Assembly: GCA_016648135.1 (NCBI GenBank) | Contig: JADDOH010000317.1 | Location: 124,001-188,000, forward strand | Length of the DNA stretch: 64,000 nt | Direction: 5' to 3' | Source: Agrypnia vestita | Taxonomy: Eukaryota > Arthropoda > Insecta > Trichoptera > Phryganeidae | In this document: positions 37,512 through 56,828 of the stretch, in pieces | Numbering within the stretch: the first letter of the stretch is position 1 | Layout: each line of letters begins with the position of its first letter | The notes under the pieces: model-generated | What the model saw: only the letters and a program-made list of their open reading frames with translations | Databases searched by the model: none | What the model was told of the DNA's origin: nothing | Made by a program: the position numbers and the translations under genes

Positions 37512-37640
37512 ATGGCCCCCCGGGACGAGGGCTACCGGCCGAACCTCCTGGCGCAGCTGCTCCATGCGCTGCCCCACGTCAATGTCACGCTGCACAGGGT
37601 CAACTCTACCTTTGCTCCACACTCGGAGCTCTACCTCGAG
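37512..37640 (+). CDS. ttyh: ttyh coding exon 1 (N-terminal extracellular segment)
   Basis: This exon has 43 codons, starting MAPRDEGYRP and ending SELYLE, with a phase-0 end at GAG|GTTATT. It is strongly GC-rich against AT-rich flanks. It carries sequons NVT and NST, fitting an extracellular N-terminus before TM1. The donor is not a strong consensus, but the join to exon 2 gives YLE-SLGILGSVP, as expected in the family. Confidence 0.85.
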
Positions 37641-40600
37641 GTTATTACTATTAACTCAAGCCTGGACGTTTTTGTGATGTGTTTCGCTTCAGTAATTGAT
37701 CCTCTTGGCCCGTTGAAGCGTAAAAAAAAATCACTTTATTAACTTGATATCTTTTACCAATATAGAATCATTATTAGACTATTAAAATAATGTTTATAAA
37801 AATTGATAATCAAATACCGCCATTATCATAAAAATTTCACCTCAATACTGTATTACTAACTGTATAGTCTACTATTATTTTTATTCTTACTGTATTGTCT
37901 ATTATTGTCATTTTACTATTATTACTGGGTGGTCTGTTTTATGCAAACTGTATATAACTAACAGTATACAGTTTAACTATATAGTCCTACATTATTATTT
38001 AAAATTGCAAAGTTATGGAAATTATTTTTCAAAACAGTGCATTTTCAGTATTTTTTTTAAACACTTTTTCCGATGTACCGTTCCATATTCCATTGGTCTA
38101 CTGCTAATGGCCATTTATTAAAATTAGTCTTCTGGCAATGGTGATTGATTCTACAATCCTGTCTGCAGCTGAAAGAGAGGCTGACCTCAGAGTTTAACGC
38201 CTTCCATTCAAGTTGTCCATATCTTCAAGAGCTCTTGAAGATATAGAGTTGCCATATTATCCTTGCCTTGAGCCTTGAACATCAACCAACTCAATTTAAA
38301 TTTGACTCTTTCAGGGAAACGAAGCCAATGAAGTTGTATGCATTATGTAGAGAAATGTAATACAGATAACCTCAATTCAATGCGGTGCTATGAGAATTTT
38401 TCATAAAACTGGTTCAATTTTAAAATTTCATAGGTGCAGCACTAAATATGGTATTGGGGGCTTCCACTGACTCATAACCATACTTCCCCGAGTATTTAAA
38501 TATATTACGAAATCAGTAAATTACCCAGTGATATGAAGGAGGTACGCTTGTATGCTAGAATAAATGCATGTAGTCGGCGCAACATTTTGTCGTGATATAG
38601 CTTTTAACAAAAATATTTATAACATAATTATTCATTAGAAAAGCCAGCCACTCTAGTTCCTTAAGGTAAATCCATTTCCAAAAAAAAATCCAATGTCAAA
38701 TTGACATATTTGTCTATGGAATGGACACAATGTGCTAAAACATATTCATGTAATAAATTCTCTCATGTGTTCTTTATTTCTGTGATATTCAGAGCTTGGG
38801 GATCCTGGGCTCGGTGCCAGCAGCCTGGCTGATCCTCACACTCCTGGTGCTACTCATTTACCTTCTCACTCGCTGCTGCGATAGGAAACCACGTCCTGCC
38901 AAAAGTATCTCAGCATTGAAGGTCAGTGAAAGTTCACCCTTAATAATTAGTAAGAGATAGGTTTTGAGTATGAGAGTGTATGCGTATACTAAATATAAAT
39001 TTACATAAGACTACATTTATGTATCATGACTACACGATTTTCTAGAGGAGCAAAGTTAGTTTGTATTTATTACATATATTATTATGTACATACATATAAT
39101 ATTAGAATTACAGATTTAGGTAGGATATTTTATTCTTTACTTGTATAAGCGTGGAGCAGATAAATTAATTAATATGATTAATATGAATGATGTAACATAG
39201 CCACCTGAAGGACATAATTGTTTACGATAATGTATCCTAAAATACTGACAGTACTTTTTGTTTTTCCCAAAAGGTGACGTTATGTATAGTGGCCGTTTTC
39301 TGTTGTGGCTCCATCGGTGTCGGTCTGTACGGTAACGATGACCTGCATAATGCCGTTATACAGGCACTCGATGCTGCTAAATCCATCAACAATATTGTTG
39401 GTTCCATTAGGAATCAGGTTTGTAATTTTTCTTTATCTATTTTATCATTGTATGATAAGTAATACACTTTTTATGATAAATAATAAACAAATAAATTTAG
39501 ATAATCGTAGAGCTATGTAGACTTAATGAATTTTCTCTAATAGGTTGTACTGTGTATTACTTAAACATTTATTTGGCATATTTTATATTCAAATATTAAT
39601 TCTGCAGACTAACTCGATTGAGCTGGCCCTCGTGAAGAAGGTGAAACCTAAACTGACGGAGCTGGCGGACATATTTGACTCCCCAGTGTCCAACCAGACG
39701 GCCCTGGGCATCTTGCTTAATACCCTGTCTTCCGTCAGGAATAACACCACGATGGCCGTCTCTGCAGCGGCAGATATCAAACGCCCTCTGGCTGGTATTA
39801 ACATGGACCGGTCGCTAGAGGTGATAAGTGTAAACCAATTTTATTTTTATTCACTCCATGTCATTCATTTGTATAAAAAAATTTGTCATCTACCTCATAC
39901 TTAAGTTAGTAATACCGAAACAAATTGACTGAATAAAAGGGCCCACTAGCTGAACAGGTCTGGAATAGTAGCGTATATTTGATATAAAATGAAAAATATC
40001 AAGACTTCGGCACACAATGTTGTTAAATTCAGTGATGTACAAGATACCCTATACAAAGTATCTGGAATTCAAAATGCAAGATACTTTAAAATCAAGTATT
40101 TCAAATACCAGATACAAAAAACATTCTGGAATGGTATCTGAAATACTAGATACAAAATACCTATCTTCCAAATACTTTATAAAGATAAAATCCTTTTGTA
40201 AGAAAACACATTTTATTGAATGTAAGTTTATTATTTTACGTGAATTATTTACAAATAAATCGCGTTGCTCGCGCAAATGTGATAAAATAAAATATTATAT
40301 TTTTAAGGTTTTAATTGAGGCTTAAGTAAAACCAGTTCTTCAAATATTTTGTCGCTCATTTTTTTTCAATGAGGTCTCATTATAGGTACATCATTGCAAA
40401 AAAGTATCTTAGCAAACTTAGTATTTACAAAATACTAAGATATCAAAATAATGTATCTAAATACAAGATATAAGATGAAAATACATACATATGTATTTTG
40501 TATCTTGTATCTGCATTTCAAATAGATACTTGTATCTTAGATAAGTCACATCTCTGGTTAAATTCCAATACTACAAAAATTATGTATGTACATAATCAAT

Positions 40601-43600
40601 ATTTTTTTATAATTAAAATAGGAAGTCTCTTATATAATAAAGAAGGTTTTCTAAATGCATAATATGTTAAAATATTGACAAATTAGTTTATCCAATATTC
40701 AGAACAGTACTGGATTTTTGTCACAGGGACATCATTAATCAATCAATGAACATTATAGATGTCTCACAGACACGAAACTGTATTTTTATGGGAAAGTAGG
40801 TATAGAAGTCTTTTGACAAATAAAGTATATTGCTAATAAAAACTCCAAAAATCAATATAGATATCTCATTAGCGACATTTGTGGTCATTCAAGGGGAATG
40901 AAAAAGCTGTGGTGCCGGTCGCGCTGAGGATCATTACAACTCATATGTGAAACGTGGTGTGTAATTTAAATATATACAACTTCCAAAAATTAGTAGACAT
41001 GGTATTCTACCATGGGTGGAAATGGCGAACGTTACATTGTGTAAAATGATCACTTACGATAGGTCGTAAGCCCTATGTACACCCAAAAGACTTCTATACC
41101 TACTTTCCCATAAAAATACAGTTTCGTCTCTGGGAGACATCTATAATCTACATTGATTAGTTTATCTAATTTTACTTTTGTGTAATTAAAATTAAGATAT
41201 ATTAAGGTAACACCAAATATTTAGATTATAGTATATAGATGTATTATTTATTTCTGTGTTTTTTGCTTGCTAAATTTTGTTAAAAATAATGGTAAAAATA
41301 TCAAAGCAATATAAGCATAAATATAAGAAAAGTCTTAGTTGGTTAAAAGCATTTTAAAATTAAGGCTCGGTTGCGCCAGCAGAAGTAAATTTAGTTCGAG
41401 TAACATTGACCCGAGTAACTTTTTTTACCCTCAGCTGAGAGTAAACTCGATTTCGGGTTGTACAAACGTCTTTTTTACCACTGTCAAACCAATAATAAGG
41501 CTAATAGGATGCCAAGCGGAATAAACCTCAAATACCGCATTTGTCTATGGAATTTGATTTATTTCAGTTTTTCACCACTGGCGATACGTACTTTTGCGGT
41601 TCAAAACCAGTTCAAACAAACCACTTTATTCTATGAAACAAACCGAAAAAACGTCAAACCATCGCTAAAATAATGCGAAATTAAAAGTTTCATTTTAATG
41701 TTTACAAATTTCAATACGAAAATGACAGTGACAAAATTCAAATGACAAGTACCTATATGGACAAATGTCACATTTTGAAATCAGCTGTGAGAGGACGGCC
41801 ATTTTTTTTTACCAACGTTTTTACCAACCTATCTTGGAGTAAAAAAAAGTTACTCATGTATGTACTTCGGTGAGTTAAATATTTTTACCATAGATGGGGC
41901 AACCCGTTTTAGTAAAAAAAGTTACTTGAGTAACTTTTTTTTACCTTTACTTTAGATGGCGCAACCGGGCCTTACTGGTGTTAATTTTCAGGTATAATAT
42001 ATGGATGGAAATTTTGTCTGTTAAATCAAAGTCCGCAAAACTTGCAAGATTCTGGTCAATAAATAACTGAAATCTTATCGTCTATCTGAATTGATTTTAT
42101 AATCCTGATTTGAATCAATCGGAAAACCAAATGTGGGATTTTTGGGAAATTAATATATTTTTATAGTACTTGTCTTGTATTTTGTCACATATTTTCAATG
42201 TTTATTTTCAAATTTATTCTCAAAATATTGACATTATTGTCAGTGTTATCATATAACAATACTACACTAACGAATAAATTGAATAATTTTAATAGACCAT
42301 TATTATTAATTACTCATAGGCATACATATATTTTGCATATGCAATAGAGTTATGTTGTATAAATATGCACAAGTCAGTGTAAATTTGTGTTGAATCAAAA
42401 TAAAATGATTTCAATGCTCCAGTAGACTTATCATAACTGCTAGAGCCTTTGGGACTGGTGAGGGGAAATTTGTTTTTTTTGTCATGACCATAATATACCT
42501 GTATTAACTGTTTGTTAAACATATTTTTTTTATGGTTATAAATTGCTACCTGGGATAAAATCAAAAGTCAATTCTTAAACTATTCATTTATTATTTTATA
42601 TACTATATAAATAGACTTGAAGAATGAAGATGGTGGTAATGTCAATGTAATACATATTCATACCGTTACATTGCACTCCAATAAAATAAGAAAACATTCC
42701 CGTATCAGAGGTATTTAAAATAATATATATTGTAATCTTGATAAAATAGTAAATGAATCTAAAAGTAGGCTATGCAAAAAATACTTTCCGCCAACTCTTG
42801 TGCTGTTTAACTAGTTTAAAAATAATCTTTATTGTACTTAAAATAGTAGGTTTTTTATATTGCAACATAAAATTGTAACAAAATTAAAGGGTGTAATCCT
42901 GTTTATAGCGCTGGCGTCGTGGAGAATGGTGGCGATGGGTGGGTGCCATGGCCGCTTGGTCCGCACTGGTGGCGGCCTGCGCTGTGCTGCTGGTCGGTGT
43001 GGCGCGACACTCACGGCGTGCTCTCATCGCCTTCAGCGTGTGTGCCCTGGCCGCTCTGGTAGCCTGCTGGCTGGCTGCCGGGGCCGCCCTTGCTGCTGCT
43101 GTGGCGCTGGCCGATGCCTGCCATGATCCTGCTGCTGCTGTCACCATGATGGCTCCGCCTGACCTACCCCCGGAAGTAAGATATAACAAAGCTTTACCGA
43201 AAATATCAAACCTGTAAACCTATCGAGCTTTCGGATATTATAGAATGTTAAGGACCCCGTGAAGTTTTTATTATTCAGTATTATCATTTTCTGTCCTTCA
43301 AGGTTAGTCATTTTTATCTGTGTTGTAAAATAATTTTATCATTCTTTCTATTATACATAGGGCCGGTTGTTTCAATTTGGATTAAAGTAAGCGTTCGTTA
43401 AAAGCATAGATATTTAAGAAAACGGATCGTCTGATTGGTGGAGAACGCAAAAATCTATGCTTTAAACGAACACTTACTTTGATTCAACTTGAAACAACCG
43501 GGCCTTATTGTGTTAGGTTTATCTATTTTTTAAATAAAATAATTAACATCATTAATGTAAAAATTACAAGTAAAAATTCAACATGTTTCATGAGAGTAAA

Positions 43601-46600
43601 CAATGAAATAGTCTGGATTAAAAACGATTTTTGGATCAAATACACAAAGAACATGGAACATGACCCACATGGAGCGCAGAGAAAAGTCTGGAAAATATTA
43701 AAAAATCAGAAGAAACCAGTAAATGAATATGTCTGAACTACCAAAATCTCTCTACAAAGGAGTGGAAAGATATTTTGAGAATTTGTACAGAGATGAAGAG
43801 CAACACGAACCTAAAGAATCGCAAGTCTCCTGGTTTGGATGATATCTCATATGAAATGTGACGTATGTAGGAAATAATTTACCACATGAAATCTATAAAC
43901 TGTTCAATAACATCCTAAAAAATTGCAAGATACCGCAGGACTGGCATATGAGTATCACGGTTTCCATATTTAAAAAAGGAAGTAAAAACAACCCTGAAAA
44001 TTAAAGAGGGTTTTCTTTTAAGTTCGGTACTTAAATTATTTACAGCAATTTTAAAAAAGAAACTCAAACAAACTATCACAAATTGAGAAAAATAACAAGG
44101 ATTTAGGAAGAATAGATCTACAACCGACGCAATATTCGTTATACGGCAAGTGAAGGAGAAATCTATAGAGTATAATAGACCAAACCATGCCTGCTCCATG
44201 GATTTAACCAAGGTGTTCCGCACAGAACAGGCAACAAAGGTGCGGTCCGCTGATTCCGCTTCAGAAGCCTTCTGGATGTCTCACACAGCACGGGCGCACC
44301 GTGTGAGCAGCTGGAAAAAGAGCGATATTAGTACACGGGAATGTGCACCAGAGGCGACAGCAAAAGAATTTGCTTCGAGCAAAATGTCTAAACTCGACGA
44401 GGTCGTCAAGAATAATCGTCTTAAAAAAGACGGTTGAACTGCGAAGAAATACTTAGCTTGGCAAAATCCGCGCCAGCAATCAGCACTCCACAGAAGCGGT
44501 AGGTACCGAGCGTGAACGTCCGCTCAGAGTCAGCACACCGCAGAAACAGTAGGTACCGAGCGTGAATGTCCGCTCCGTGTCAGCACACCGCAAGGCGATC
44601 GCCGCCGATAGCAAGTACCGGGCGTGAAGCGAGAGCGCTCGGCGTTAGCAGTCAGCAACAGCAGATCTTGATGACGTAGTTCGGCTCGAGCTTGAGAGCG
44701 AGCGATGTCAGCAGGCAGCAAAATCGTAGGAGGTAGTCGGGTGAGTAAATGAAACACACGTGAAGGGTTTGCCACGGCGTTTTAAACCAGACTGAGGGTC
44801 GGTCCGCCTTGAATGCGATATTTATACCCTCGGCCGGGACCAGGAGGCCCCGGCCTCGAAGCCAATTAAAACAAGTTACAGTTTGCATACAAATGGCGCG
44901 TTTCGGCCGCTTATTTCTACTACATATATTACAGTTTTTTAATTATTAAATTAAACGCACCTCCCCCGGAGGATTTACATATATGTCATTACATTGACTG
45001 CGTCTCAATAAACAGTCTGACATATTGCGTGGCAACCTTGAGACATTATTATTAAAGCAACAGTTAAAATATATCTCATTTTCTGGCCCGGCGGGCTATG
45101 AAATTTCAACAATTAAATCTCTTAAAAATCCAAATTAACTTTTAGGTTTAGTTTTTTGTGTCTATTATATAGAGTGCGTCGCAGCGCATCTGTTGATATA
45201 TCACACTTTATTGTAAGTCGCAGCTTACTATAGTTATGAATTTTTAAACTTTTCAACAAAAAACTAATTTTGTAATTTATTCAAAATTATTTCCACATAT
45301 GAGTGTGTATATTCTCTAGATAGGTCTTGATCCACTGATCATTATACAAAAAGAATTATCAAAATCGGACACCTCTGACGGAAGTTATTCCGGTTTGTGT
45401 GTTCATATGAGCTTTTGTATGGAAAAAACCCAGCCCAGTATGTCGCTCATAAGCGGCGGCTGGTTTTGTGTTGGTGGTGTCAGACTTATGTTTCCATATT
45501 AATGTGATTGTGATTCACTCATTAATAATGTATTTGAAAAAGTATTTAGATTTTTCCTTGCCATAAAAAATGTATGTTTTTTACCAATGATCTGTTGGCA
45601 ATCTGTTATGCCATACAGTCAATCATTTATTGTGTCATCTGTAGACAACTTTTTATGTCTTACAGAGTGTGTGCATGTGTGTGACTCTACTACTTATCTT
45701 TTATAAGTGTTGAGACAACTTTAATGTTGCTTATCTGGCAAATATGATGATAATAGGGTACAAAATGCGCCTTGTGCGCAAATAAAAACATCTCCCGCCC
45801 GCTCTTTTTATTAAAACAATGAAAATGCGGTATTTTATTACATAGAATTATGATTCAGGTCCATCTGAAATCAAAAAACCATTAATTTCCATCATATTAG
45901 AGAGCTCTGAAATGTAAAAAAATCTGAACATTAATATTTTCATATAATATTTTCAGCAAAAACATACACATTTCAGATCATGCACTCTAACGCATTTCCA
46001 TTGTCATCAGCGGGATGCGTTCTCATGGAGCTGAGGCTCCGCATTCGCTCATCCCCTCTCCCGGGTGCCGCCGCCTGACGCCGAGACACGTATAAGGACA
46101 ACCACCGCGGCCGAGAACTCGCGCGCTGTCCTCGGCACGGTACCCATCCTCAACCGGGGCACGGCGATCGGCGTTGGCCCTGAAAGGGGCCTTTGCTCTG
46201 TTTCATTCACATGAGAAATTTCTATCATTTATATGACGTGATTACGTCAACTACAGAGCTCGAAAGTTCGGTTGCCTGACGGTAGGCGCAGGCAATGTCC
46301 TGTCCATAACACAAGGTGTAAAACAAATGCGGAACAAAAGGGAGTGTCGCTCCCAAAATATGTTGAATTTTTATTATAAAATTTAATTGTTAAAATAAAG
46401 TGTTAATTATTTTATTTACAACATGATGCCACAAAGGGAATTTAAAATTTTTTAATCAGTTATTTATGTTTTTATTAAAGTTTATATTTTTATAGTATTT
46501 TTTCCATACTCATTTTATCTGATTTCCATGCAGTGTTTCACCCGTGCGCCAGTTGCATATTCATCATTATTAATTTAATTAACAGATCGTCCGCTACTAC

Positions 46601-49600
46601 TTAAGCTGCGAAGTGACCCATGGTAACCCTTTCACGCAACGACTGAGGGAATCGCAACGCTCCGTATCTAATGTCCGCCAGGGACTCTTACAGCTGGGTC
46701 GCATTGCCACTTCCACATTCAATAATCCAGGTTAGTGTGTTTTGAGGCGGCCATCCACATTGCGGTATGCCTTCGCAGGTATACCGGAGCATGTATGCTA
46801 TAAAAGTGTACAGGCGAAAGGAGAAAAATTGAAATTCTTTCTGCTTGCGCATTTCTTTTTTTTCTTGAAGATTCTTTTTACCTGTGCAGTACAGACTAGA
46901 GCATGTGTGGGTGCTCACCTATGCAGTCACCTAAGGTCTCAGTTGTGCCGTAGCTGTGACAGAGAACGGTTGTGTTGTGTGCAGTGTATTTATTCTTTTA
47001 AAAAAATTTTTTTTTTAAAGTCGTAAGCGTAATTAAAGAGTTAACTGAAATTTATAAATTAGAACCGTGTCTTTGATACTTAAAGAGTAAGGACTACCAT
47101 GATCGCTCCAAAGAAGAAGCTGAATATAGAAAATTGCTGCAAAAGCTAAAAGAATTGGAGCCTGACACCAATAAGAATATAGTTATAAAAAAAATATTTA
47201 ATTTGTGAAGCAATTTACGAAAAGAGATAAAGAAATATAAAGCTCGGGAGCGTCATCAGACGACGCGTATAGACCAACATTGTGGTACAATAATTTATTT
47301 GATTTTCTGGGTATAAGACATTCTAGGGTATTATGCCGTGTTTTTAATAGGAATCATCATAAAGTTTTCATAATGATTCAGTGTTTTATGCATAATCTCA
47401 TCTAACAGCACAAATTTTGAATATTAAAATACAGATTTAAGGGAATAACCCGTATGACATTTTTTTGTTGATATTTTGCAAAACAAATCATTTTAGATTG
47501 AGTCCTCAACTAGGTACATTGTATTTAATTTTGTGTGCAGGCTTGCAGCCAGCACTTAGCTCCTTGACTGCGGAGACCAATGCAGCTGAGCGTGTGCTGA
47601 ACAGCCTCACGGCCCTGGTGGGCTGCCAAGCGGTGCGCGCGCACTACACTGCGGGCGCGAGGGCGCTGTGCGATGCGGGTCTGTTGGGGCTAGCGTTACT
47701 TCTGCTGGCTGCTGTGCTCGCCGGCCTGCTCTTCACCGTGCTTGTGTGGGTGGACAGCCACACTTGGATCTACATACAGAAGAAGTGAGGCGCAATGTTA
47801 TCTCCTTCAGTGTTTTTAGTAACCTCCAGATATTTTTCCCATTTTACGATGTTTGTCATAGTTTTTTAAAAAATAGCACTATTTTCAAAGCCCGGAAAGC
47901 AATTTGCTTAGTCAGAATTTTGAGATCTCTCGACGAGGAATTGGGAAAGACTCATCTCACTTAGATATAAAATAAGTCTTCACAATAAATTAATGTTTAT
48001 TTAAGTTGAAAATTTATCCACTCTGTATGTGAGTATACATACATACAACATAATATGTATTGAATATTCTTTTATTAAATGAATTATGTTAAGTAGATAA
48101 CGACTGCTTTTGTATTTTCTCGGAAATCCTCAGTGTCAATGAGATTAAAAAATAGTACTTGTTTGTGTATAAGCTGGTTAAACTTCCGGGAGATATCAAA
48201 TTAAAGCAATGTCATACAGCATCTATAATTTGTCAGTAAAATGTCACGTGAGAAATACTATAAACTAGCTGTACCCGTAAAAAATGACGGAACATTGGTT
48301 CGCGTCTTTGCTAAGCCCTAGTATATATTTATAGTACCTTTTTGAGGGTTCACGGAGAGGCGATCATAGCAACATGCGTAGAGCAGGTTTGCTAGCCCGG
48401 GGTTCAAGCCCTATCTTCGGCCGTTTAATTTGTTTTTAGCCGTGAATTTGAACAAAATTACGGATGTTACATGAAGTTACGGATGAACAGACAGACGGAC
48501 AAACACAGAAATTATTATGTTTGATAATATAAAAATATTTTTTTAGTTAAAGACTATATATGAGGAGTATAAAAGCAAAAGCAACAATATCCCGCTGAGG
48601 TGTTTTTGAGATAAATACAAAAAACCTTTCACTACTCAAATAAATTTCTCTGGAATGTACGTAACATACAACTTACTGGAAATAAGTTTTTTTAAATCAT
48701 TGCCACCTTAGTTTTCTTTAGTATAAATAAATATTTAACTTTTATATTTGGATATTGCTGTCTTTGCTATGATTTTCAATCTAAAATTGACACCAACTCT
48801 CACTTCAGTATGTAACGGCCATTTTAAATCATTTTTAACCAATATCCACTTCAACCAATCAACCCTAGCGGGGGAGGTTTGCCTTGCTTTCATACCCCTC
48901 ATATATATGATCTGTTCATTTTTATAAATGTCTTATAGGCGGGACTACGGCGGAGATGAACACGCCCCCTTCCTGCCCTCATCGTCATCAGCCAGCGGAG
49001 CCCTGGTGCCCACCGGCGGCGGAGCGGCCCCCGGAGGCGGGGCGCGCACCCTGCCCCGGAGCCAAGGGTCGTACAGCCCGCCCCCCCTCCCCCACCACCA
49101 CCACCCCTCGGCCCCCCCCTCCTATGGCTCTGCGCTGGCGATGGCCGCGCTGTCCCCCCCACTGCAGCACAGGCATGACAAGCGATAGAGCTTCTTTTTA
49201 TTTCCAAAAATAATCAGACTGTTGAATTATTTAAATTTTTTCATCGGCAAAAGCCATATATGTATTTGTGTAAGTAATATCATTCAAAACGACAATTCCT
49301 TGTCGTTTTCATAAATTCGATATAATGTGTAAAAAGCAGCATTTAGAAGTAAAAGCTATGGGTCATACATTTGTAAAGGCAGTTCATTTTAATTAGGATA
49401 AATTATAGAAGTCTCACAGAGACAAAGATTATTTTATGAGAAACAGAGTGCATTTCATTTTGCCTGTCAATCAGTGTTCCTTCATTTAATTAGATGAAGT
49501 TCAGCAATTTTATTTATTATTTTTCTTGTACGTAAATTGTATTTCAAGTATTAACATATTATGATCATGATAAAAATTTAGGCATCAAATTCAGGAATGA

Positions 49601-51850
49601 GGTTAAAGGATGGGTTAACATTAAGAGCAGCGCTTGTAGCCCAGCGGACATGATACTAGTTTCTCAAACCGAGAGTTCTGGGTTTGATTCCCGGTTAAGT
49701 CATAATAAATCTAGGTGATTTACCTGAGCCTGGGTGTTTTGGTGAGGTATAACATATTAAAAAAATTGATTGTTGATATTTGCTAGCTATCTTTATTATC
49801 AATTAAATAAATTTAAAAAAATGTTTTCGTTTCAGTAAATGGGCCTCATGGCCTGTATGAGTGTTTAAAAAAGATAAATATATATTTTTTTAAATTTCGG
49901 AAACGAAGTTTCACAGTCTGGTTATTTTTCAGTTATATTTTAAAACTGTGATTTTCTTGGTTGGCAAGGTGTGTACACCAGCTTTGTTAAAATTTTCAGT
50001 CAATTATTGTATTTAAATAAATTTACTTAAAAATGTAAGTAGCCCAATAATTATTAAAAGTAAAACGAATACGTATGCACTATTTTCCCAACTTTGAAAT
50101 CACAGTCATTTAGGTTAACCTTAGTTATGCATTTTATGTCTTAAATACATTATATAGTTATGCAATAAATACTCTGTTGTAAGCAATTCAGGATTTCTCA
50201 GGAACGGTCTAACTAACCAGCCTACCATCGCTATTACTTAATTCCTTCTGCTCACAAAGTGGAATCTTGTATGTTCCGACAAATTATGCAAAATCAGCAT
50301 TCAATATCCTAATTCGCAATAGTACATTACCATTGCATCATTCTAAAATTATCTTCCAATATTTTTCTGTAATTGTACAAACAATTCTCTTCACTTCAAA
50401 CAACTCTGTGCTCACTAATTACCTTAGTTACACAGTTGCCATATCATCTTGTAACAATTTTTTTCTGTCTGTCACCATTCAAATATACAGTATTAACAGT
50501 AAGATATTTAATATCCTAATAGTTTATTTTAATATTGGTTAAAAAATTTTGCAATGTAAGCATTAACATAAAATTTTATTTGTAAACTGATGATTTCTAC
50601 CGATTCTCTGAAATAAAAATGAATTCTATGAAAGAAAAATAATTAATTTAAATTATACAACTTACGAGTCTGACCATCATGTAAATGTCCTACGAAAGCG
50701 GAGGTTGAACCAATAAAACTATGCTTTTGAAATATGAGTAAGTAAACTGCTGAGTTTATTAGAAATATATTATAATTTTTTTCTCCTCTTTAATGTTTTC
50801 TTGTTCTTTAATGTTGTTCTTAATTTAGCATGTAGTCTAAGATTAAAAAAAACATTTTCTTATCTCAATTTTTTTGCTACATATTAGCTATTGTCTTTGT
50901 GGTTGTTATTTTATATTCTCTCTGGAAGATTCATTTTGTGTTTCTTCTTAAATGTAATTTTGGCTGTGCAAATATTTTATTTGGGTTTATTAGCAACTTC
51001 TGATAGAGAAGCATGATTATTTTTTTAATGTTGATAATAATTGGCTATCGTTTGTGTGATTCTACGTACATTCCGACTTCATTCAAGTTTCTGTTTTATT
51101 TTTTCCTTTGGTGTTTTAGGATCATATTCAGTGTATTATTTAATAGTGAATGTGGTTCATGCTGCAAGCCCTGCTTTGTGCCTCCGACACCCCTTCTCCA
51201 GCCCCGACGACTATTCTCTCCTCTCTGAACTCTGCCGAGTGATTCAATTTATCCATTGTCCTTTCGAGACACAATTTTAGTTTAATATGTTTATTCAATT
51301 ATTGCTAATTACAACATATTAGCATTTAAATAGCCGTAATTGCGGCATTTTTGATTGTGTTACAAACATTTAAAATGATATATGTAATACGTATTTCCTT
51401 AAAATCATTCTCATAAAACCCTGGTGTATTGGTAATATTGAATTTTTCAAAACAGAATCTTTTAAAAACATGAAAATAGAATTTTTGAACAGTCAATTTT
51501 ATTTACAATCAAAAATATGGTTTATATATTATCAAAATATTTTAATAAGACTGTAATTTACAGTGGAATAATACATTATAAATTAAAATTTGAGTGAAAG
51601 TATTTGCAACGTATTGTTGTTGTATGTTTACAGAAATGACGGTGGCATCGGTCAGTACGGTTCCGGCAGAGGCGGCGGGGGCCCAGGGGCCGGGGGCACC
51701 GGGGGGCGTGGCGGTCATCTCCCCTCGGGGGCCTGCCACACGCTGGGCCGCCTGCCCTCACACAGCCCCGCCGGCGCAGGACCCAACAATGGCAAGTACG
51801 CGACTCTGAGCAAGCAGTGCAAGACTCTGGAGAGCTCCGACTTCTACTGA
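37512..51850 (+). CDS. ttyh: Tweety homologue (TTYH family membrane protein), nine-exon gene model
   Basis: Model: exons 37512-37640, 38793-38921, 39274-39417, 39608-39820, 42909-43175, 46586-46730, 47541-47784, 48939-49172 and 51634-51850. All phases agree, and the sum is 573 codons plus UGA. Membrane segments are predicted near residues 46-70, 87-107, 219-237, 243-270 and 389-413, the five-TM plan of Tweety proteins. N-glycosylation sequons fall at N24, N31, N163 and N179/N180. Family-typical pieces include LGSVPAAWLI, RYYLSCEV, the cysteines of VGCQ and ALCDAG, and the post-TM5 string WIYIQKKRDY. Tweety proteins are plasma-membrane proteins reported as volume- or calcium-regulated chloride channels, although structures show no obvious pore and suggest lipid handling. 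The start is the ATG in GGCCATGG, just before the conserved N-terminal helix; an upstream in-frame ATG at 37443 is less likely. Intron 8 needs a GC donor. The family call is firm; exon 8/9 joining is less so. Confidence 0.9.
38793..38921 (+). CDS. ttyh: ttyh coding exon 2 (TM1)
   Basis: The acceptor is TATTCAG and the donor AAG|GTCAGT; 43 codons, phase 0 at both ends. It encodes a hydrophobic run ending in IYLLTRCCDRKP, i.e. TM1 followed by the basic, cysteine-containing cytoplasmic turn typical of Tweety proteins. Confidence 0.9.
39274..39417 (+). CDS. ttyh: ttyh coding exon 3 (TM2 and start of extracellular domain)
   Basis: The acceptor is CCCAAAAG and the donor CAG|GTTTGT; 48 codons, phase 0. 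It encodes TM2 (VTLCIVAVFCCGSIGVGLYG) followed by an amphipathic helix of the first large extracellular domain. The splice site leaves GTG as the first codon. Confidence 0.9.
39608..39820 (+). CDS. ttyh: ttyh coding exon 4 (extracellular helical domain)
   Basis: The acceptor is TTCTGCAG and the donor GAG|GTGATA; 71 codons, phase 0. It is helical and charged, with glycosylation sequons NQT (residue 163) and NNTT (179-182), between TM2 and TM3. The reverse strand also has an open frame, but codon content and family match favour the plus strand. Confidence 0.9.
40030..40556. mobile_element. hAT-type MITE in ttyh intron 4
   Basis: An exact 8-bp duplication GTTAAATT is at 40022-40029 and 40557-40564. 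The ends are CAGTGATGTAC and, inverted, CAGAGATGTGAC, followed by many AAGATAC/GTATCTT units. 527 bp, non-coding. The 8-bp target duplication and CAG-start ends define hAT. Confidence 0.85.
40755..41145. mobile_element. MITE with about 60-bp terminal inverted repeats, ttyh intron 4
   Basis: TATAGATGTCTCACAGACAC at the left mirrors the right end with few mismatches; identity runs through TTTTATGGGAAAGTAGGTAT on both arms. About 390 bp. A partial relative (ATAGAAGTCTCACAGAGAC) is at 49405-49430. Confidence 0.8.
41361..41974. mobile_element. MITE with TAAGGCYCGGTTGCGCCA ends, ttyh intron 4
   Basis: Inverted ends at 41361-41378 and 41957-41974. Inner parts share AGTAACTTTTTTTACC blocks in both orientations. 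About 614 bp; no transposase frame. Superfamily not resolved. Confidence 0.75.
42909..43175 (+). CDS. ttyh: ttyh coding exon 5 (TM3 and TM4)
   Basis: The acceptor is TGTTTATAG and the donor GAA|GTAAGA; 89 codons, phase 0. The first residues RWRRGEWWRW precede TM3, then VLLVGVARHSRRAL links to TM4 and CWLAAG. Other frames are also open because the exon is GC-rich, but only this one splices in phase on both sides and matches the family. Confidence 0.88.
43360..43504. mobile_element. Small MITE (145 bp), ttyh intron 5
   Basis: GGGCCGGTTGTTTCAATTTG at 43360 mirrors ...AACTTGAAACAACCGGGCC at 43504. The arms of about 55 bp also share AAAGCATAGAT. No coding capacity. Confidence 0.8.
43655..44215 (+). 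pseudogene. Decayed non-LTR retrotransposon reverse transcriptase in ttyh intron 5
   Basis: Fragments in changing frames read KVWKILKNQKKPVNEYV (near 43686), KSPGLDDISYEM (near 43823), then LPHEIYKLFNNILKNCKIPQ and DWHMSITVSIFKKGS with PENYRG-like text (43881-44010), and TTDAIFVIRQVKEK-like text at about 44120. The order is that of the palm/fingers region of a LINE RT. It ends at about 44215, where unrelated GC-rich sequence begins. Confidence 0.7.
44380..45022 (-). mobile_element. LTR-like segment with core promoter, ttyh intron 5
   Basis: On the minus strand it starts TGTCAGACTG at 45022. TATAAATA lies at 44819-44826 and an insect initiator TCAGTC has +1 at 44793, about 33 bases downstream. 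A GC-rich leader follows, with a 50-bp tandem repeat (44481-44632). This suits a retrotransposon LTR. The other boundary and a target duplication were not found, so a non-LTR promoter remains possible. Confidence 0.4.
44481..44632. repeat. 50-bp tandem repeat, three units
   Basis: Units start CAGCAC at 44481, 44531 and 44581 and share GTAGGTACCGAGCGTGAA and GTCCGCTC; the third is diverged. Inside the LTR-like segment. Confidence 0.75.
46586..46730 (+). CDS. ttyh: ttyh coding exon 6 (second extracellular domain)
   Basis: The acceptor is TTAACAG and the donor CCAG|GTTAGT; 145 nt, ending in phase 1. The text begins IVRYYLSCEVTHGNPF and continues as an amphipathic helix. The RYYL-x-C pattern is a Tweety hallmark in the second extracellular domain. 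Confidence 0.9.
47541..47784 (+). CDS. ttyh: ttyh coding exon 7 (second extracellular domain, TM5)
   Basis: The acceptor is TTGTGTGCAG and the donor AA|GTGAGG; 244 nt, phase 1 in and phase 2 out. It encodes the helix with VGCQ and ALCDAG cysteines, probably paired extracellularly, then TM5 (about residues 389-413) and WIYIQKK at the cytoplasmic face. Confidence 0.9.
48264..48528 (+). mobile_element. tRNA-derived SINE, copy 3 (ttyh intron 7)
   Basis: Same family: GTAAAAAATGACGGAACATT, CTTTGCTAAGCCCTAGTATA, GGGGTTCAAGCCCTATCTTC, and a tail with ACAGACGGACAAACACAGAA. All three copies share one orientation. Confidence 0.75.
48557..48905. mobile_element. MITE abutting the ttyh exon 8 acceptor
   Basis: TATATGAGGAGTATAAAAGC at 48557 mirrors GCTTTCATACCCCTCATATA ending at 48905. 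It shares TATAAAAGCAAAGGCAGC(A)AATATCC with the element at 4236. It ends 33 bases before exon 8. Confidence 0.75.
48939..49188 (+). CDS. ttyh: ttyh exon 8 (cytoplasmic Ser/Pro/His-rich tail), with alternative short end
   Basis: The acceptor CTTATAG gives KKRDYGGDEHAPFLP, the conserved segment after TM5, then a low-complexity tail with a poly-serine run, a PPPLPHHHHP stretch and GGG runs. Two ends are possible. If not spliced, the frame stops at TAG 49186-49188 after QHRHDKR, a 506-residue isoform. If a GC donor at 49173-49174 (CACAG|GCATGA) is used, the exon ends at 49172 in phase 2 and joins exon 9 in frame. I see no well-placed GT donor; a weak one in AAGG|GTCGTA would also be phase 2. Confidence 0.8.
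49625..49760 (+). mobile_element. tRNA-derived SINE in ttyh intron 8
   Basis: The A-box-like TGTAGCCCAGCGG and B-box-like GGGTTTGATTCCCGGTTAAG are followed by a tail with TGATTTACCTGAGCCTGGGT. A decayed tRNA-like body; a functional tRNA is unlikely. Confidence 0.55.
51116..51229 (+). other. Possible alternative terminal exon inside ttyh intron 8
   Basis: A pyrimidine-rich acceptor (TTTGGTGTTTTAG) ends at 51119. In the phase set by exon 8's GC donor, the frame runs 36 codons through CGSCCKPC to TGA at 51226-51228. Composition is GC-richer than the neighbours. No family match is known to me; a second frame over the same bases is also open, so coding status is unclear. Confidence 0.25.
51634..51850 (+). 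CDS. ttyh: ttyh exon 9 up to the UGA stop
   Basis: The acceptor is ATGTTTACAG. One nucleotide completes the phase-2 codon, then the text begins NDGGIGQYG and is glycine-rich, with HTLGRLPSHSP and GKYATLSK. It ends ...ESSDFY at UGA 51848-51850. The segment is intrinsically disordered and cytoplasmic. The frame is not closed in practice: see the 256-codon continuation downstream. Confidence 0.8.
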
Positions 51851-52621
51851 GGGCGCGCGGGCGGCGCCGGGCCCCCGCCCCCGCCTCTGGCCCTCGACCC
51901 GCGCGGCCTGGCGCCCCCTGACCCCCGCGACATCACACCGCTCACTAACCAGATCAACCGCTTCGATCCCAAGTACGCTTCCTTCGGTCCAAAGCATCTC
52001 AAGGCTGTGGGAGGCCCGCTCAAGGCGCAGCCACTCCCCGACATCGGAGAGCTACCTCCGCGCGTTGAACTTCCTCCTCGTGTGGAGTTGGCCACCTTTC
52101 AACGCCCTCCACCACAACCCGACAAGTACGCAACCATCCGTACTGGAGGCAAGTATGATAAGAGTCACAAATACGCGCAGCAAGTGGAGCGCGAAGAGGC
52201 AGCTGCCACACTGGATCGGCGAGCCCGTCGCCCGACTCCCAAGACAGGCAACGGAGTATCCATCGTCCACCAGCCTCTTCCGGAGCCCCCGCAGCCTCTC
52301 AGCGCGGCTCATTTCACTCAGTACCGCTCGCCGGCTCCACCAGCTCTACCCTGCTGCCCGCAAGGTGGGCAGCCGTCACACCGCTCCCAGAACAGGGCGG
52401 GCCGCACCCCTGAAAAGTTTTTCTCTACCAGCAGTCAGCGACCTTCCCACTCGCACACTCTGGACCGCCGGCATCACACCAGTCAAGGTGGCCAGGGGGG
52501 CGGAGGCGGACGCAGCGGGTCTCAGACCCTGGACCGAAGGGGACGCCAGGGTCCGCGGAGCGCACCGCAGGACCAGGGAGGCGAGGCCACCAAGGACCTG
52601 TACGCCGTCACCGAGTTGTAA
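51851..52621 (+). CDS. ttyh: Candidate stop-readthrough extension of ttyh (256 codons)
   Basis: After UGA at 51848 the same frame is open to TAA at 52619-52621, followed by two more stops (TGA, TAA). About 770 bases without a stop would be notable even at this high GC. The translation is protein-like: LTNQINRFDPKYASFGP, an exact tandem ELPPRV-ELPPRV, KYATI, HKYAQQ and three TLDRR copies. Its KYA and TL(D/G)R motifs also occur before the UGA (GKYATL, HTLGR), which ties the two parts to one protein. The last residues are YAVTEL, a class I PDZ-ligand pattern. I recall readthrough being reported for a Drosophila tweety gene, but cannot verify it here. Alternatives: a hidden intron, RNA editing of UGA, selenocysteine, or an assembly error. 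Confidence 0.7.
   Translation, partial: GRAGGAGPPPPPLALDPRGLAPPDPRDITPLTNQINRFDPKYASFGPKHLKAVGGPLKAQPLPDIGELPPRVELPPRVELATFQRPPPQPDKYATIRTGGKYDKSHKYAQQVEREEAAATLDRRARRPTPKTGNGVSIVHQPLPEPPQPLSAAHFTQYRSPAPPALPCCPQGGQPSHRSQNRAGRTPEKFFSTSSQRPSHSHTLDRRHHTSQGGQGGGGGRSGSQTLDRRGRQGPRSAPQDQGGEATKDLYAVTEL
51859..51880 (+). promoter_or_regulatory. Possible GC hairpin just downstream of the ttyh UGA
   Basis: GGGCGG at 51859-51864 can pair with CCGCCC at 51875-51880, starting eight bases after the stop. RNA structures 3' of leaky stops are known in insects. The whole stretch is GC-rich, so pairing could be accidental. Confidence 0.3.
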
Positions 52622-55600
52622 TGATAACTTCCGAGTGAAGCCCACGTGGATGGTAGTCATTGCGTGGTTTCACTTATATCAAAAAAATGTGGCGACAAAA
52701 GCAATAAATTTTTCATCAAATATGAATGTAATTTGGGAAAAGATGGTGATAAAGAAGATAAATGCTGACTTGGAAATTGGACTTAACAAAATTTGGCTAA
52801 TGAGCGGTTTGTTTGCGGAGTGGGGGACTAGCCTCGGGTTCATTCTGTTTTGATTGATTAGTGTCTGCCTGAGGAATGCTGAAATATTTATATTTTGGAC
52901 TAAATCGCCTCGTGAAGAAAAATGATCAATTATTACAGTTTACTAAATAAAAGTATCTTTTTTAAAAATAAACCTCCGCGGGTGATTTTATATAATTAAA
53001 GGAGAAGCGCTCAGCGCTGAGTGGTATGAGACGGAGTCGTCTACGTGTTGTTTTGTTCATTCAATGTTGTCGTACTAACTTTAACTCTACTCGTAAAAGA
53101 CTCAGTGTTTGTAATATCTAGAATAAATAGTCAGGTAGGTAACACCGAACAACTGAAATGACAAACGGGATCAAATTTTACTTCATCACGCTTCCAGCGA
53201 CGTCCTCATACCCCCCGCACTTATACAAGTTCTCATTTCTGTACTTTTTCACACCAAACCATTAAATTAAGATTACTGAGCACAAATTGTACATAATATT
53301 GGAGTATATGAATTCACTCCATGTTTTCAACATTTTTTAGTCATTATTTAGATAAAATCTCACAATTTAAATAAAAATCATTTCATACTCGGCATTGATA
53401 AAATTATTCCCACAAAACAGAGAATTCAATTAATCTGATTAAGTTTTAAAAAAAATAGAATCTCATAGAAAGTAAAAACAACGAAATTGTGAAAAAAATT
53501 ATTAGGATTCTCGATTCACAAATCAATAATGATACTTTAAAGTTATTCATATAAATTATACTCAAACTAATATAAACATAGTATGAAATGTATCTTTCGA
53601 ATTTAAGAAATTGATAAAACAGAATGAAAGATGAGGAATGCTGGGTTATTTGAACATAATAAATAATGAGAGAGAAAAAAACTACAGTGTCCATACAAAT
53701 GATGTCACATTATTTAAGACTAGATAGCCTTTAGGTTAAGATAAGGTGTTTTGCGATGGATTTGGTGTTGATGGTTATACTTAGGAAATAAGCAGATGTT
53801 ATTTATTCCTCGAGTTGTAAGCTAGTTTACAAAATGACTTTTATATGTATTCGCATGACGTACCCAGACTGGCCTCGGCCAAGCGAACTCACACACAAGT
53901 GGGCTCCGGGTATGGCTTGTGCACTTTTGTTCATAAATATCATTGTACGAGCACAACTAATCAAATATTAATTAAGCCTGCATTTTTTCATTCCATATAA
54001 TTGTTTTAATGAATCTTTTACAGAATATCATGTTTTGTTATTCACATTAATGTTTTTTTATCCAATTTTTTATGATCACGTTGTTCCAATGATTTTCCTT
54101 TAACTGATTCAGTTCAATAAAAGCTAAACCAGTTACCGGAGACATGATACATTTTAAAACAAGTGAAGTGTTTGACTTTTGTAGATATTTCTATCGAGCC
54201 TATTTATATAAATTTATTATATTAGAAATAAATTGTAGGTTTTCGTAAACTGTGGACACATACAGTGGTTTGTATTAACATTTTATAGGCAAATGCTCAA
54301 AATAAATTTCATATATATGATAAGTAGTTTAGTTATAACAAATTCATTCAAACATTTAATAAGCACGAAGATTTAATAAGAGTGTGTCGATGTGGAGTAT
54401 AAATATTGAAAGTAAGTTTCTTGTTTATGAATTTTGATTGCCATCTTGTAATGTGAAGATTTCTAGTAGCGGTTGTGTACTGACGGCATGAGAAATCTAC
54501 ATCTATCAAATTATTCAAAGTTGATCTTTTCATATATTTTTATGTATATTATTTCTGTATAAATAATTTATAATAATGAATTAATGTTAGACTGTACAAA
54601 CTAGTCAATCTTATATGTGACCCCTCATCACTTGATGAGTATGGGGCAACGCTACTTGGTTTTCATTATGATAAATTATTAAATATTTATTTTGATATCA
54701 TCACATCTTGTGGGGGTTTTAATGCTTGCGGTGTGTGGTGTGGCGATCTGCGTACCCACAGACATTTCTAATTAACTCCTGACAATATATTTATTTTCCT
54801 TTTTGGAAAAATCATCCACGCCTCACATATAAAATAATACAAATTTTAATATTTAGTTAGAATGCTACGGTGCATACTATTTGATACTTAATGTGTTTTT
54901 GTGTACAAAGTTTATAATACATATTGTCGTGCCCATATTCTACTGTATGTAATTATAATTGCAGAAATAATCCGATTTCTTATTCAGTTAAGATGGTATA
55001 CTTTTATAATTTTTTAGATTATCAATATTGATATAATTACCATCGTCACTGCAAATACTTTACAAGTAGCTCTCGGTTTGTACCATGATAAAATGAACAT
55101 AATTAAATAATGTAAGACAATGAGTTACTTTCCTAGTCTCCCTGAAAAAATATATGTATGTACATAATATGATATCGGTTGTGGATGTGGAAAGAACTTG
55201 AAAATTAATGCACAATTCAGCCACTTGGAAATTAATGCGCAGTAAAAAATGAAAAATAAAATATTCTTAGTTATACAAAACAAGTAATCTAAATTCAGTT
55301 AAATTAAAATCATTATATTCTATTTTTCCAACAAAGTGCAAATGGTTGAAGATCATCTCAGAATTGGGATACCATTATGCTCCTTTTCGTGTTAGCATTT
55401 TGCTCAAAATAATGGTCAATCTCAGAATTCATGAGCAATGGCCTCCGTTGTTGAAAGCCCTCCACACTCGCCTTTGCGCAGTGTAGAAACCACATGTTTT
55501 TCCAAAATACCAAGCTAACTGGGGATATTGTGGTTATTATAATACTGATATTATTATAATATATGTTATTATTACAACTGGGGAATCAGCGCAAATAGAA

Positions 55601-56828
55601 CTGTCATAAACCAAGAGCTGCTTGTAATCTATATTTTGCCTATATTGTATAGAACTGAACAAATTTCTGAAATATAGAAGCCAGTAGGATGATTTTTAAT
55701 TTATACATCACACGTATGTTCAAGAGTCGTTTAGCTATACACATTGACTGTATGCCCGAACTGACAGTAACGTAAAGCGTAAAAAATTACTGCAAATGTG
55801 ATCATAATTATTTGTATTGTATTTTTTAAGGCCAATTTCAATATATGTAATTATTTGATCTGTGTGTGCCATATGTCAGAATAGGGGAATACGAACCATT
55901 CCTTTAGTCCCCATTTTCCTTAATGCATATTGTTGTGGAGAACTTGTTTGTTGTAAAAGTCGGTTCATTTTTATTTAACAGAATTTATAAAAAGGATCTT
56001 TTTGTATGTTATCAACATATAATTATTTAAGACCCATTTTTATACGGCAATGATTGTCATTCCACTGTGATGATTTATAGTTAACAAGAAATTGATCAGT
56101 GAAGATAAATGATTTAATTTTCATATTTAAGATGAATTTTTCTATACCTACATCACTGTCATATAAATTAATTTAGATGGAAGTTTCAATCATTTCCATG
56201 AGTTGGTATGGCCATCAACTTAATACATGAATATATAGACAACTGAGATGAATTTAATTCTAAAAAAGGTGACGATTAGTTTAAAGTTTTTCAATTTTAT
56301 TTATATCTTTAAGAAAACACCCAATTGGCTCAATTGTAGCATTTTATAATTCCATTGTGATTGAAATGTGTTAGTTTTTGTAATTTCTAATACACATTTT
56401 AAGATGTGTTGACTAAAATTACACTAAGTATTGTTCAGCCAATATTTTGCCAAAGATAATATTATCATTAACTTTTATGTTACATTTACAAATACAAAAC
56501 AGTGTAAACTCGCTAAAATATTCCTGCTTTTTCTAAGAGTATACAATCATTATTTTTGATGTTTTACTTCTTTTGGATACATATTCTTAAGACAAGACTT
56601 TTTAAAAATTGCAATTTTTTTTTATTATTCGCAATATATATTGATTTACAACTGATCGACTTTTGATAAAGTATTCTCGATTTATAAGTAGTTAATTCAT
56701 GCTAAATATATTAATTACTCGATGGTACTGTGTATAATATACACTTAATAAAAATATTAGAATTCTTTGTGCTTTTTCTTTCAATCCTATTTACTGTTCC
56801 ATTTGTAATGCCTATATTTATTATATTC
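52622..56828 (+). other. Probable ttyh 3' untranslated region and AT-rich unique-looking DNA
   Basis: No coding frame or recognisable transposon is seen here. AATAAA occurs at 52703-52708 (about 80 bases after TAA) and 52946-52951, with more A/T-rich signals at about 54117 and 56748. Base composition drops sharply to AT-rich right after the coding end. This is the longest stretch in the right half without an obvious repeat. It may be a long 3' UTR, but that is inference. Confidence 0.4.

What the first reader, a model, noticed from the sequence alone, without database searches (positions are those of the whole stretch)
51848..52621. 256-codon open frame directly after the ttyh UGA: candidate programmed readthrough
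Seen: the frame entering UGA 51848 continues without a stop to UAA 52619, and three stops follow in a row. The downstream peptide is non-repetitive in parts and shares motifs with the segment before the UGA. Known: insects use stop readthrough widely, with UGA the leakiest stop. I recall a Drosophila tweety gene among the reported cases, but cannot verify it. Inference: a short 573-residue and a long 830-residue protein are made. The base after UGA is G, not the strongest leaky context.
Basis: partly seen in the sequence, partly recalled or inferred. Interest (0 to 1): 0.88.

Follow-up and report, generated by a model that had tools for sequence, protein, structure and literature searches.

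The report
Conserved tail behind tweety stop codon
In what looks like a caddisfly, the gene for the membrane protein tweety has a long protein-coding stretch right after its stop codon that matches tails of fly tweety proteins, so some ribosomes probably read through the stop to add a 256-residue tail ending in a putative docking motif.

Summary
In detail: a nine-exon tweety (TTYH) gene ends at UGA 51848-51850 after 573 codons; the frame runs on for 256 codons to UAA 52619, then UGA, UAA. Openness alone is weak evidence (33 of 2000 shuffles stay open; the +1 frame is open too). Homology is decisive: a profile of 56 related tails (the eight with organism names all Diptera) gives this frame 50.5 bits; the best of 2144 other sequences gets 6.7. 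Blocks DPRD..NRFDPKY..GPK, K-ATxRxGG, QPLPE-P and LY[AS]VTEL keep their order. The frame has no ATG; the first AATAAA lies beyond the UAA. Seven of 224 listed homologues continue past the same DFY stop, each with Trp there (inferred: UGA read by another code). Best explanation: UGA readthrough adds a tail with a class-I PDZ-ligand-like end (-TEL). Main rival: alternative splicing, which long Drosophila tty models imply; here one weak acceptor overlapping the UGA (TGAG|) is the only one that keeps the conserved start of the tail. The context (UGA-G) is not the classic leaky one and downstream structure is not beyond composition. No RNA or peptide data were available. A new member of a known kind, perhaps already in supplementary lists I could not open.

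The parts
37512..37640 (+). tweety coding exon 1 (start ATG 37512)
   Evidence: homology
38793..38921 (+). tweety coding exon 2
39274..39417 (+). tweety coding exon 3
39608..39820 (+). tweety coding exon 4
42909..43175 (+). tweety coding exon 5
46586..46730 (+). tweety coding exon 6
47541..47784 (+). tweety coding exon 7
48939..49172 (+). tweety coding exon 8, ending at a GC-AG type donor (AG|GCATGA)
   Evidence: junction fits Arctopsyche P0001 (..LHRNEASGQYG.. vs ..LQHRNDGGIGQYG..)
51634..51850 (+). tweety coding exon 9 up to and including the first stop
51848..51850 (+). UGA stop, followed by G
   Evidence: 140 of 224 listed homologues end at the same D[FY]Y
51851..52618 (+). 256-codon extension frame, no in-frame ATG
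51920..52000 (+). conserved block DPRDITPLTNQINRFDPKYASFGPKHL
52124..52156 (+). block KYATIRTGGKY, resembling KCATLRHGGRY of P0121
52253..52330 (+). conserved block GVSIVHQPLPEPPQPLSAAHFTQYRS
52592..52618 (+). C-terminal KDLYAVTEL, class-I PDZ-ligand-like end (-TEL)
   Evidence: 51 of 224 listed homologues end in TEL
52619..52627 (+). TAA TGA TAA, end of the extension
52703..52708 (+). first AATAAA after the UGA; none between UGA and UAA
51851..51926 (+). GC-rich predicted stem-loop just 3' of the UGA; stable, but not beyond composition
   Evidence: 80-nt fold; z-scores
51792..51797 (+). GCAAGT donor-like site in the GKY codons; would pair with acceptor TGAG|51852 (60 nt) in the splicing rival

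Best explanation
The mRNA of a single-copy (pre-duplication) insect tweety gene carries a UGA followed by a conserved 256-codon frame. Most ribosomes stop and make a 573-residue channel-like membrane protein; a minority insert an amino acid at the UGA and make an 830-residue form. Its extra tail is proline-rich, probably disordered (not tested), and ends in LYAVTEL, which would let PDZ scaffold proteins hold the long form at particular membrane sites. Shown by computation: gene model, open frame, homology of the tail, shared stop position. Inferred: the readthrough itself, its rate, and the PDZ role.
For: Profile of 56 related tails: 50.5 bits, E 2.3e-14, for this frame; best of the 2144 other sequences 6.7 bits. 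Without the FNRFDPKY filter (35 tails): 46.2 vs 4.9 bits. P0121 found from the caddis sequence alone, E 2.3e-10, a score that includes 29 shared pre-stop residues; extension-only BLASTP vs P0121 E 6e-7 and 2e-5. Seven of 224 homologues continue past the DFY stop, all with W there and all with a next residue encoded by a G-codon; in P0191 a W also follows the terminal TEL, so a UGA-as-Trp table was probably used. P0072 joins the full membrane domain to the tail through that W. Database models in Topomyia (P0153) and Lutzomyia (P0148), both named partial, lack a Met and start, by alignment with P0121, directly or two residues behind the stop; Aedes (P0155) has the tail as a separate protein. No in-frame ATG. 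First AATAAA beyond the UAA. Only one acceptor lies before the DPRD block; it overlaps the UGA and scores below the gene's own eight; donors of exons 7 and 8 meet no in-frame acceptor before 52165.
Against: UGA-G is not the classic leaky context (UGA-C/UGA-CUA, recalled; PMC13170385 section 18 stresses +4 to +9). RNA structure after the UGA is not beyond composition (z +1.05 to -1.51 for four windows starting within 9 nt of the stop; z -1.08). Drosophila tty long models reach a YAVTEL tail without the GKYATL..DFY segment, i.e. by splicing, and P0152 (Pseudolycoriella tweety-2) is modelled likewise. Profiles from 15 long forms and from 4 hymenopteran tails did not recover the caddis extension; pairwise matches to Hymenoptera are weak (E 0.3 or worse) and centre on the last eight residues. 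No named lepidopteran or beetle protein with the extension was listed. The first 23 codons after the UGA are not conserved with P0121. The Trp codons are inferred, not seen as DNA.
Confidence: 0.68

Rival explanations
1. Alternative splicing makes the long form. A 60-nt exitron-like intron runs from the GC donor in the GKY codons (AATG|GCAAGT, 51792) to an acceptor that overlaps the stop (TTCTACTGAG|GG, exon start 51852); retention gives the short form, removal the long one, in frame.
For: Long Drosophila/tephritid tty models lack GKYATL..DFY (GPNN|A.. in the six whose junction was shown), and P0152 reads GPNNG|SS... The gene already uses one GC-AG intron, with a weaker donor than this one (-1.6 vs 0.9). 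The join keeps frame. The first base after the UGA is G here, and the next residue is of a G-codon in 7 of 7 continuing homologues, as an AG acceptor would demand.
Against: It ranks 13th of 530 in-frame pairs. Acceptor score -2.2, below all eight acceptors of the gene (-0.4 to 4.6); 35% of the 2924 AGs on the + strand of the window score as well (hand-set matrices). GAG acceptors are rarely used (recalled). 60 nt against 190-3410 nt for the other introns. P0072 has the unspliced segment fused to the tail.
Confidence: 0.15
2. Alternative splicing with an acceptor far inside the extension (for example 51796 to 52435, or exon 8 to 52165 or later) makes a long form that keeps only a later part of the tail.
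For: The best-scoring in-frame pair of 530 (donors within exon 9) has donor CAA|GTACGC and acceptor TTTTTCTCTACCAGCAG at 52435; exons 7 and 8 have in-frame acceptors from 52165 on (not scored).
Against: It removes some or all of the conserved blocks at 51920-52330, which would then have no reason to be kept in frame.
Confidence: 0.06
3. Recoding other than near-cognate readthrough: selenocysteine insertion, or A-to-I editing of UGA to UGG.
For: UGA is the codon for both; Trp is what the continuing homologues show.
Against: No SECIS family match in 51500-56500 at E up to 10. ADAR disfavours an A with G on its 5' side (recalled). P0191 also has W at a second, terminal position, pointing to translation table choice rather than editing.
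Confidence: 0.04
4. The tail is a relic or a separate gene or cistron, not part of a tweety protein now.
For: Some annotations treat it as a separate protein (P0148, P0153, P0155, P0201).
Against: No ATG in 256 codons, frame and motifs intact, and 15 listed homologues hold both the last membrane segment and a TEL end.
Confidence: 0.05

Closest known systems
Insect programmed stop-codon readthrough genes (catalogued by PhyloCSF in Drosophila and Anopheles; PMC5100048, passages seen)
   Same: Single in-frame UGA, conserved coding frame behind it, stop position shared among homologues, insect host.
   Different: UGA-G context rather than a classic leaky one; shown here by protein homology across orders, not by codon-substitution signatures; no experimental support.
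Drosophila tty long isoforms (e.g. P0113, P0114)
   Same: Homologous membrane protein with a long tail ending YAVTEL.
   Different: The database models skip GKYATL..DFY and its stop, i.e. reach the tail by splicing.
Dipteran tweety-2-type tails: P0121, P0149, P0150 (unnamed), P0153, P0155, P0201 (named)
   Same: Tail blocks in the same order; where the C-terminus is held it reads Y-S-V-TEL; in P0121, P0149 and P0150 the tail directly follows the DFY stop, read as W.
   Different: The caddis gene branches outside the dipteran tty/tweety-2 duplication; the tails listed are Q/N-rich in part and often longer. That the tail-only and unnamed ones belong to tweety-2 is inferred.
drifter/vvl stem-loop-promoted readthrough in Drosophila (PMC13170385: abstract, passages and section 18 seen)
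   Same: A stable stem-loop starting within about 10 nt of the stop is predicted here too.
   Different: Here the stability is what base composition alone predicts; stop and context differ (UAG there).
PDZ recognition sites proposed in fly/yeast readthrough extensions (PMC4999894, one passage)
   Same: A PDZ-ligand-like end gained by reading through a stop.
   Different: Here the end is shared by 51 of 224 homologues; the passage names no gene and calls for experimental tests.

Membership tests
Tweety (TTYH) family | Tweety domain | tested here: met
   PF04906 E 7.3e-117, residues 10-440; PDB TTYH1 7p5j E 8.8e-48
Programmed stop-codon readthrough gene | in-frame, conserved coding sequence after the stop | tested here: met
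   conserved blocks start 23 codons after the stop, the first 23 codons are not conserved with P0121
Programmed stop-codon readthrough gene | stop position conserved in orthologues | tested here: met
   140 of 224 listed proteins end at the same D[FY]Y; Arctopsyche P0001 among them; the stop codon type in them was not seen
Programmed stop-codon readthrough gene | synonymous-substitution (PhyloCSF) signature in orthologous DNA | not testable with these tools
   no orthologous insect DNA reached; the genome search did not complete; one viral-contig scan found no relative
Programmed stop-codon readthrough gene | leaky context (UGA-C or UGA-CUA), typical rather than obligatory (recalled) | tested here: not met
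   UGA-GGGCGC
Programmed stop-codon readthrough gene | downstream RNA structure, optional | tested here: inconclusive
   MFE -38.8 kcal/mol, z -1.08; nine windows z -1.71 to +1.45
Programmed stop-codon readthrough gene | no splicing that bypasses the stop | tested here: inconclusive
   one weak in-frame acceptor remains; no RNA data
Programmed stop-codon readthrough gene | ribosomes or peptides beyond the stop | not testable with these tools
   no profiling or proteomics data
Selenoprotein | SECIS element in the 3' UTR | tested here: not met
   no SECIS match in 51500-56500 at E up to 10

The most novel reading that the evidence does not exclude
An ancestral insect tweety made its PDZ-ligand tail by reading through one UGA. 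After a duplication in the dipteran lineage the two copies reach the same tail by different routes: tweety-2 keeps readthrough, while tty splices out the short C-terminus with its stop. The UGA-G may even serve twice, as a leaky stop and as the AG of a weak 3' splice site, which would explain why the next base is always G.
Probability: 0.25. Interest if true: 0.78.

Novelty: new member of a known kind. Interest (0 to 1): 0.56.

Why it matters
Few readthrough tails have a proposed function (general knowledge). This one is long, recognisable from flies to a probable caddisfly, and ends in a motif whose job (PDZ scaffold binding) can be tested directly. It offers a way to ask how and why a readthrough route is exchanged for a splicing route after duplication. 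It also warns annotators: in several insects the tail is listed as a separate protein or joined by doubtful introns.

Tried and rejected
Openness of the frame as proof: rejected, since 33 of 2000 shuffles stay open and the +1 frame is open as well. RNA structure as the trigger: not supported beyond composition. Selenocysteine: no SECIS. Hymenopteran and Drosophila tty tails as homology proof: profiles of 15 long forms and of 4 hymenopteran tails did not recover the caddis extension and pairwise matches are weak, so I do not claim full-length homology with them. The two bee models that jump ESS|REPP (P0090, P0108) would need a 36-nt intron if their DNA is like P0072, so I read them as gene-prediction artefacts (inference). 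Viral contigs scan for relatives: none. Literature: searches gave no paper; one search listed six papers with 'tweety' and 'readthrough', none about insects by title (listing only); one search listed six papers with CG3638, of which I looked into two by passages (PMC8273234; PMC11175612, where 'readthrough' does not occur); and one search are listings; 'find' in PMC5100048, PMC3840789, PMC4999894 and PMC13170385 gave no mention of CG3638 or tweety; supplements were not open. This is not proof that it is unpublished.

Caveats on the numbers: one search listed the best 120 of 267 hits, so the 224 proteins are those listed, not all homologues, and they are not independent lineages. The 56-tail and 35-tail profiles came from a search whose query alignment held the caddis tail as one of three rows; the 56 were further chosen for FNRFDPKY, part of which the caddis frame has. 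P0121, found from the caddis sequence alone, is the independent anchor, and the extension-only comparison is. The splice scores use matrices set by hand from general knowledge.
Full report
Observation. The window holds a tweety (TTYH) gene on the + strand. Nine coding exons from 37512 to 51850 splice into 573 codons and a UGA at 51848-51850. Pfam Tweety matches at E 7.3e-117 and solved TTYH1-3 structures at E 8.8e-48 to 2.8e-44. The closest protein found is tweety of Arctopsyche grandis, a hydropsychid caddisfly, 80% identical over 69% of the 830-residue query; in a tree of 34 sequences the window, Arctopsyche and the five rows of the moth branch form one group (100/100). I infer a caddisfly. 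One intron (49173-51633) is of the GC-AG type; the Arctopsyche protein fits that junction.

The frame after the UGA runs 51851-52618 without a stop or an ATG, then TAA TGA TAA. The first AATAAA is at 52703, beyond the UAA. Openness is not impressive in itself: 33 of 2000 dinucleotide shuffles stay open and the +1 frame is also open.

Is it protein? Searching with residues 545-830 found P0121 at E 2.3e-10, a protein that begins in the pre-stop segment, has W where the stop is, and continues with DPRDVSGNGFNRFDPKYISIGPKAL, KCATLRHGG, GISILNQPLPEIP, NLNQYRS and DLYSVTEL. With the extension alone, BLASTP gives E 6e-7 and 2e-5. A profile search followed; the three searches list 224 proteins in all. 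A profile of the 56 that hold FNRFDPKY (eight carry organism names, all Diptera) gave this frame 50.5 bits; of the 2144 other sequences tested (1143 six-frame ORFs of the window, 1001 shuffled or reversed versions) the best had 6.7. Without that filter, 35 tails gave 46.2 against 4.9 bits. By contrast, a profile of 15 long forms (mostly Drosophila tty and Hymenoptera) recovered only the exon before the stop, and one of 4 hymenopteran tails recovered nothing relevant.

How do relatives treat the stop? Of 224 proteins, 140 end at the same D[FY]Y, 51 end in TEL, and 33 do neither. Seven continue past DFY; all seven have W at that place, and the next residue is G, E or D, all of them G-codons. P0191 shows a further W just after its terminal TEL, which I read as a table with UGA=Trp. 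P0072 joins the complete membrane domain to the tail this way. Models in Topomyia and Lutzomyia are named partial, lack a Met and start directly or two residues behind the stop by alignment with P0121; Aedes has the tail as a separate protein, and D. melanogaster SD02285p (P0201) is a tail-only protein. Fifteen TEL-ending proteins hold the last membrane segment; P0072 has W, the other 14 lack the DFY stop segment, e.g. GPNN|A in Drosophila and tephritid tty, ESS|REPP in two bees.

Readthrough or splicing? I listed all in-frame pairs of a donor in exon 9 and an acceptor behind the UGA, intron 45 nt or more (530 pairs; hand-set matrices). The ten best land at 52303-52483, inside or behind the conserved blocks. 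Between the UGA and the DPRD block (51920) there is a single AG, the one formed by UGA and the next G; with the GCAAGT donor in the GKY codons it would give an in-frame 60-nt intron, 13th in the ranking. Its acceptor score (-2.2) is below all eight acceptors of this gene (-0.4 to 4.6). Skipping exon 9 does not help: the donors of exons 7 and 8 have no in-frame acceptor before 52165; exon 6 could join 51852 but would lose exons 7 to 9. So readthrough is favoured, but the exitron-like alternative is the one to test, the more so because splicing is what long Drosophila tty models imply and because the next base is always G.

Context and structure. UGA gave the highest readthrough of the three stops in a Drosophila dfr reporter (PMC13170385, section 18), but the following G is not the classic context (recalled). 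That paper reports that stem-loop stability and distance matter (passages). Here a GC stem forms at once after the stop (-41.9 kcal/mol for 80 nt; -38.8 for 100 nt from 51856), but four windows starting within 9 nt of the stop score z +1.05 to -1.51, so selection for structure is not shown. No SECIS was found.

Evolution. In the tree the dipteran tty and tweety-2 clades and the flea form one group (98/99) apart from the caddis and moth genes (midpoint root, drawn only). With any root outside that group the duplication is later than the split, and the window's gene is co-orthologous to both; tweety-2 copies of other orders, if they exist, were not sampled. The tail is thus at least as old as the common ancestor of flies and caddisflies. 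The Hymenoptera share the last residues (LYAVTEL), which suggests greater age but is too short to prove it.

Function. The tail adds no Pfam domain. The end Y-x-[VAMI]-T-E-L is found in 51 of 224 proteins and fits a class-I PDZ ligand (general knowledge). PDZ recognition sites in readthrough tails were proposed before, without a gene name in the passage I saw (PMC4999894). A review says the importance of the long C-terminus of Drosophila tweety is not known (PMC8273234, passages).

Verdict. The finding is real and the tail is coding; readthrough is the best but not the only route. Kind: a new member of insect programmed readthrough, with an unusually clear tail and a possible mechanism switch between paralogues. 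I could not check supplementary catalogues, so the fly and mosquito orthologues may already be listed.

Noticed in passing
window 11460-12590 (-) and 26815-27945 (-): Two mariner-type (Mos1-like) transposase frames of 377 codons (stop to stop), identical at 1129 of 1131 bases, with 32-base inverted termini: probably a recently active element.
   Followed up: partly
window 8940-10454 (+): 505-codon open frame with a reverse transcriptase domain (PF00078, E 2e-35), probably a retrotransposon.
   Followed up: no
window 49173-51633: GC-AG intron in tweety, with a weak donor (CAG|GCATGA); without splicing the exon runs into TAG and would end ...QHRHDKR, a possible third C-terminus.
   Followed up: partly
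window 51851; P0072, P0121, P0147, P0149, P0150, P0181, P0191: The base after the stop is G here, and the next residue is of a G-codon in all seven continuing homologues, although the residue itself changes (E, D, G). Unexplained.
   Followed up: partly
window 51810-52850 (+): A second overlapping open frame of 347 codons (stop to stop) in the +1 frame of the same GC-rich stretch; the tail profile did not match it.
   Followed up: partly
P0181, P0191: Two unnamed tweety fragments with a much shorter tail after the stop (58 and 49 residues to TEL, W included), ending YMVTEL, so tail length varies greatly.
   Followed up: no
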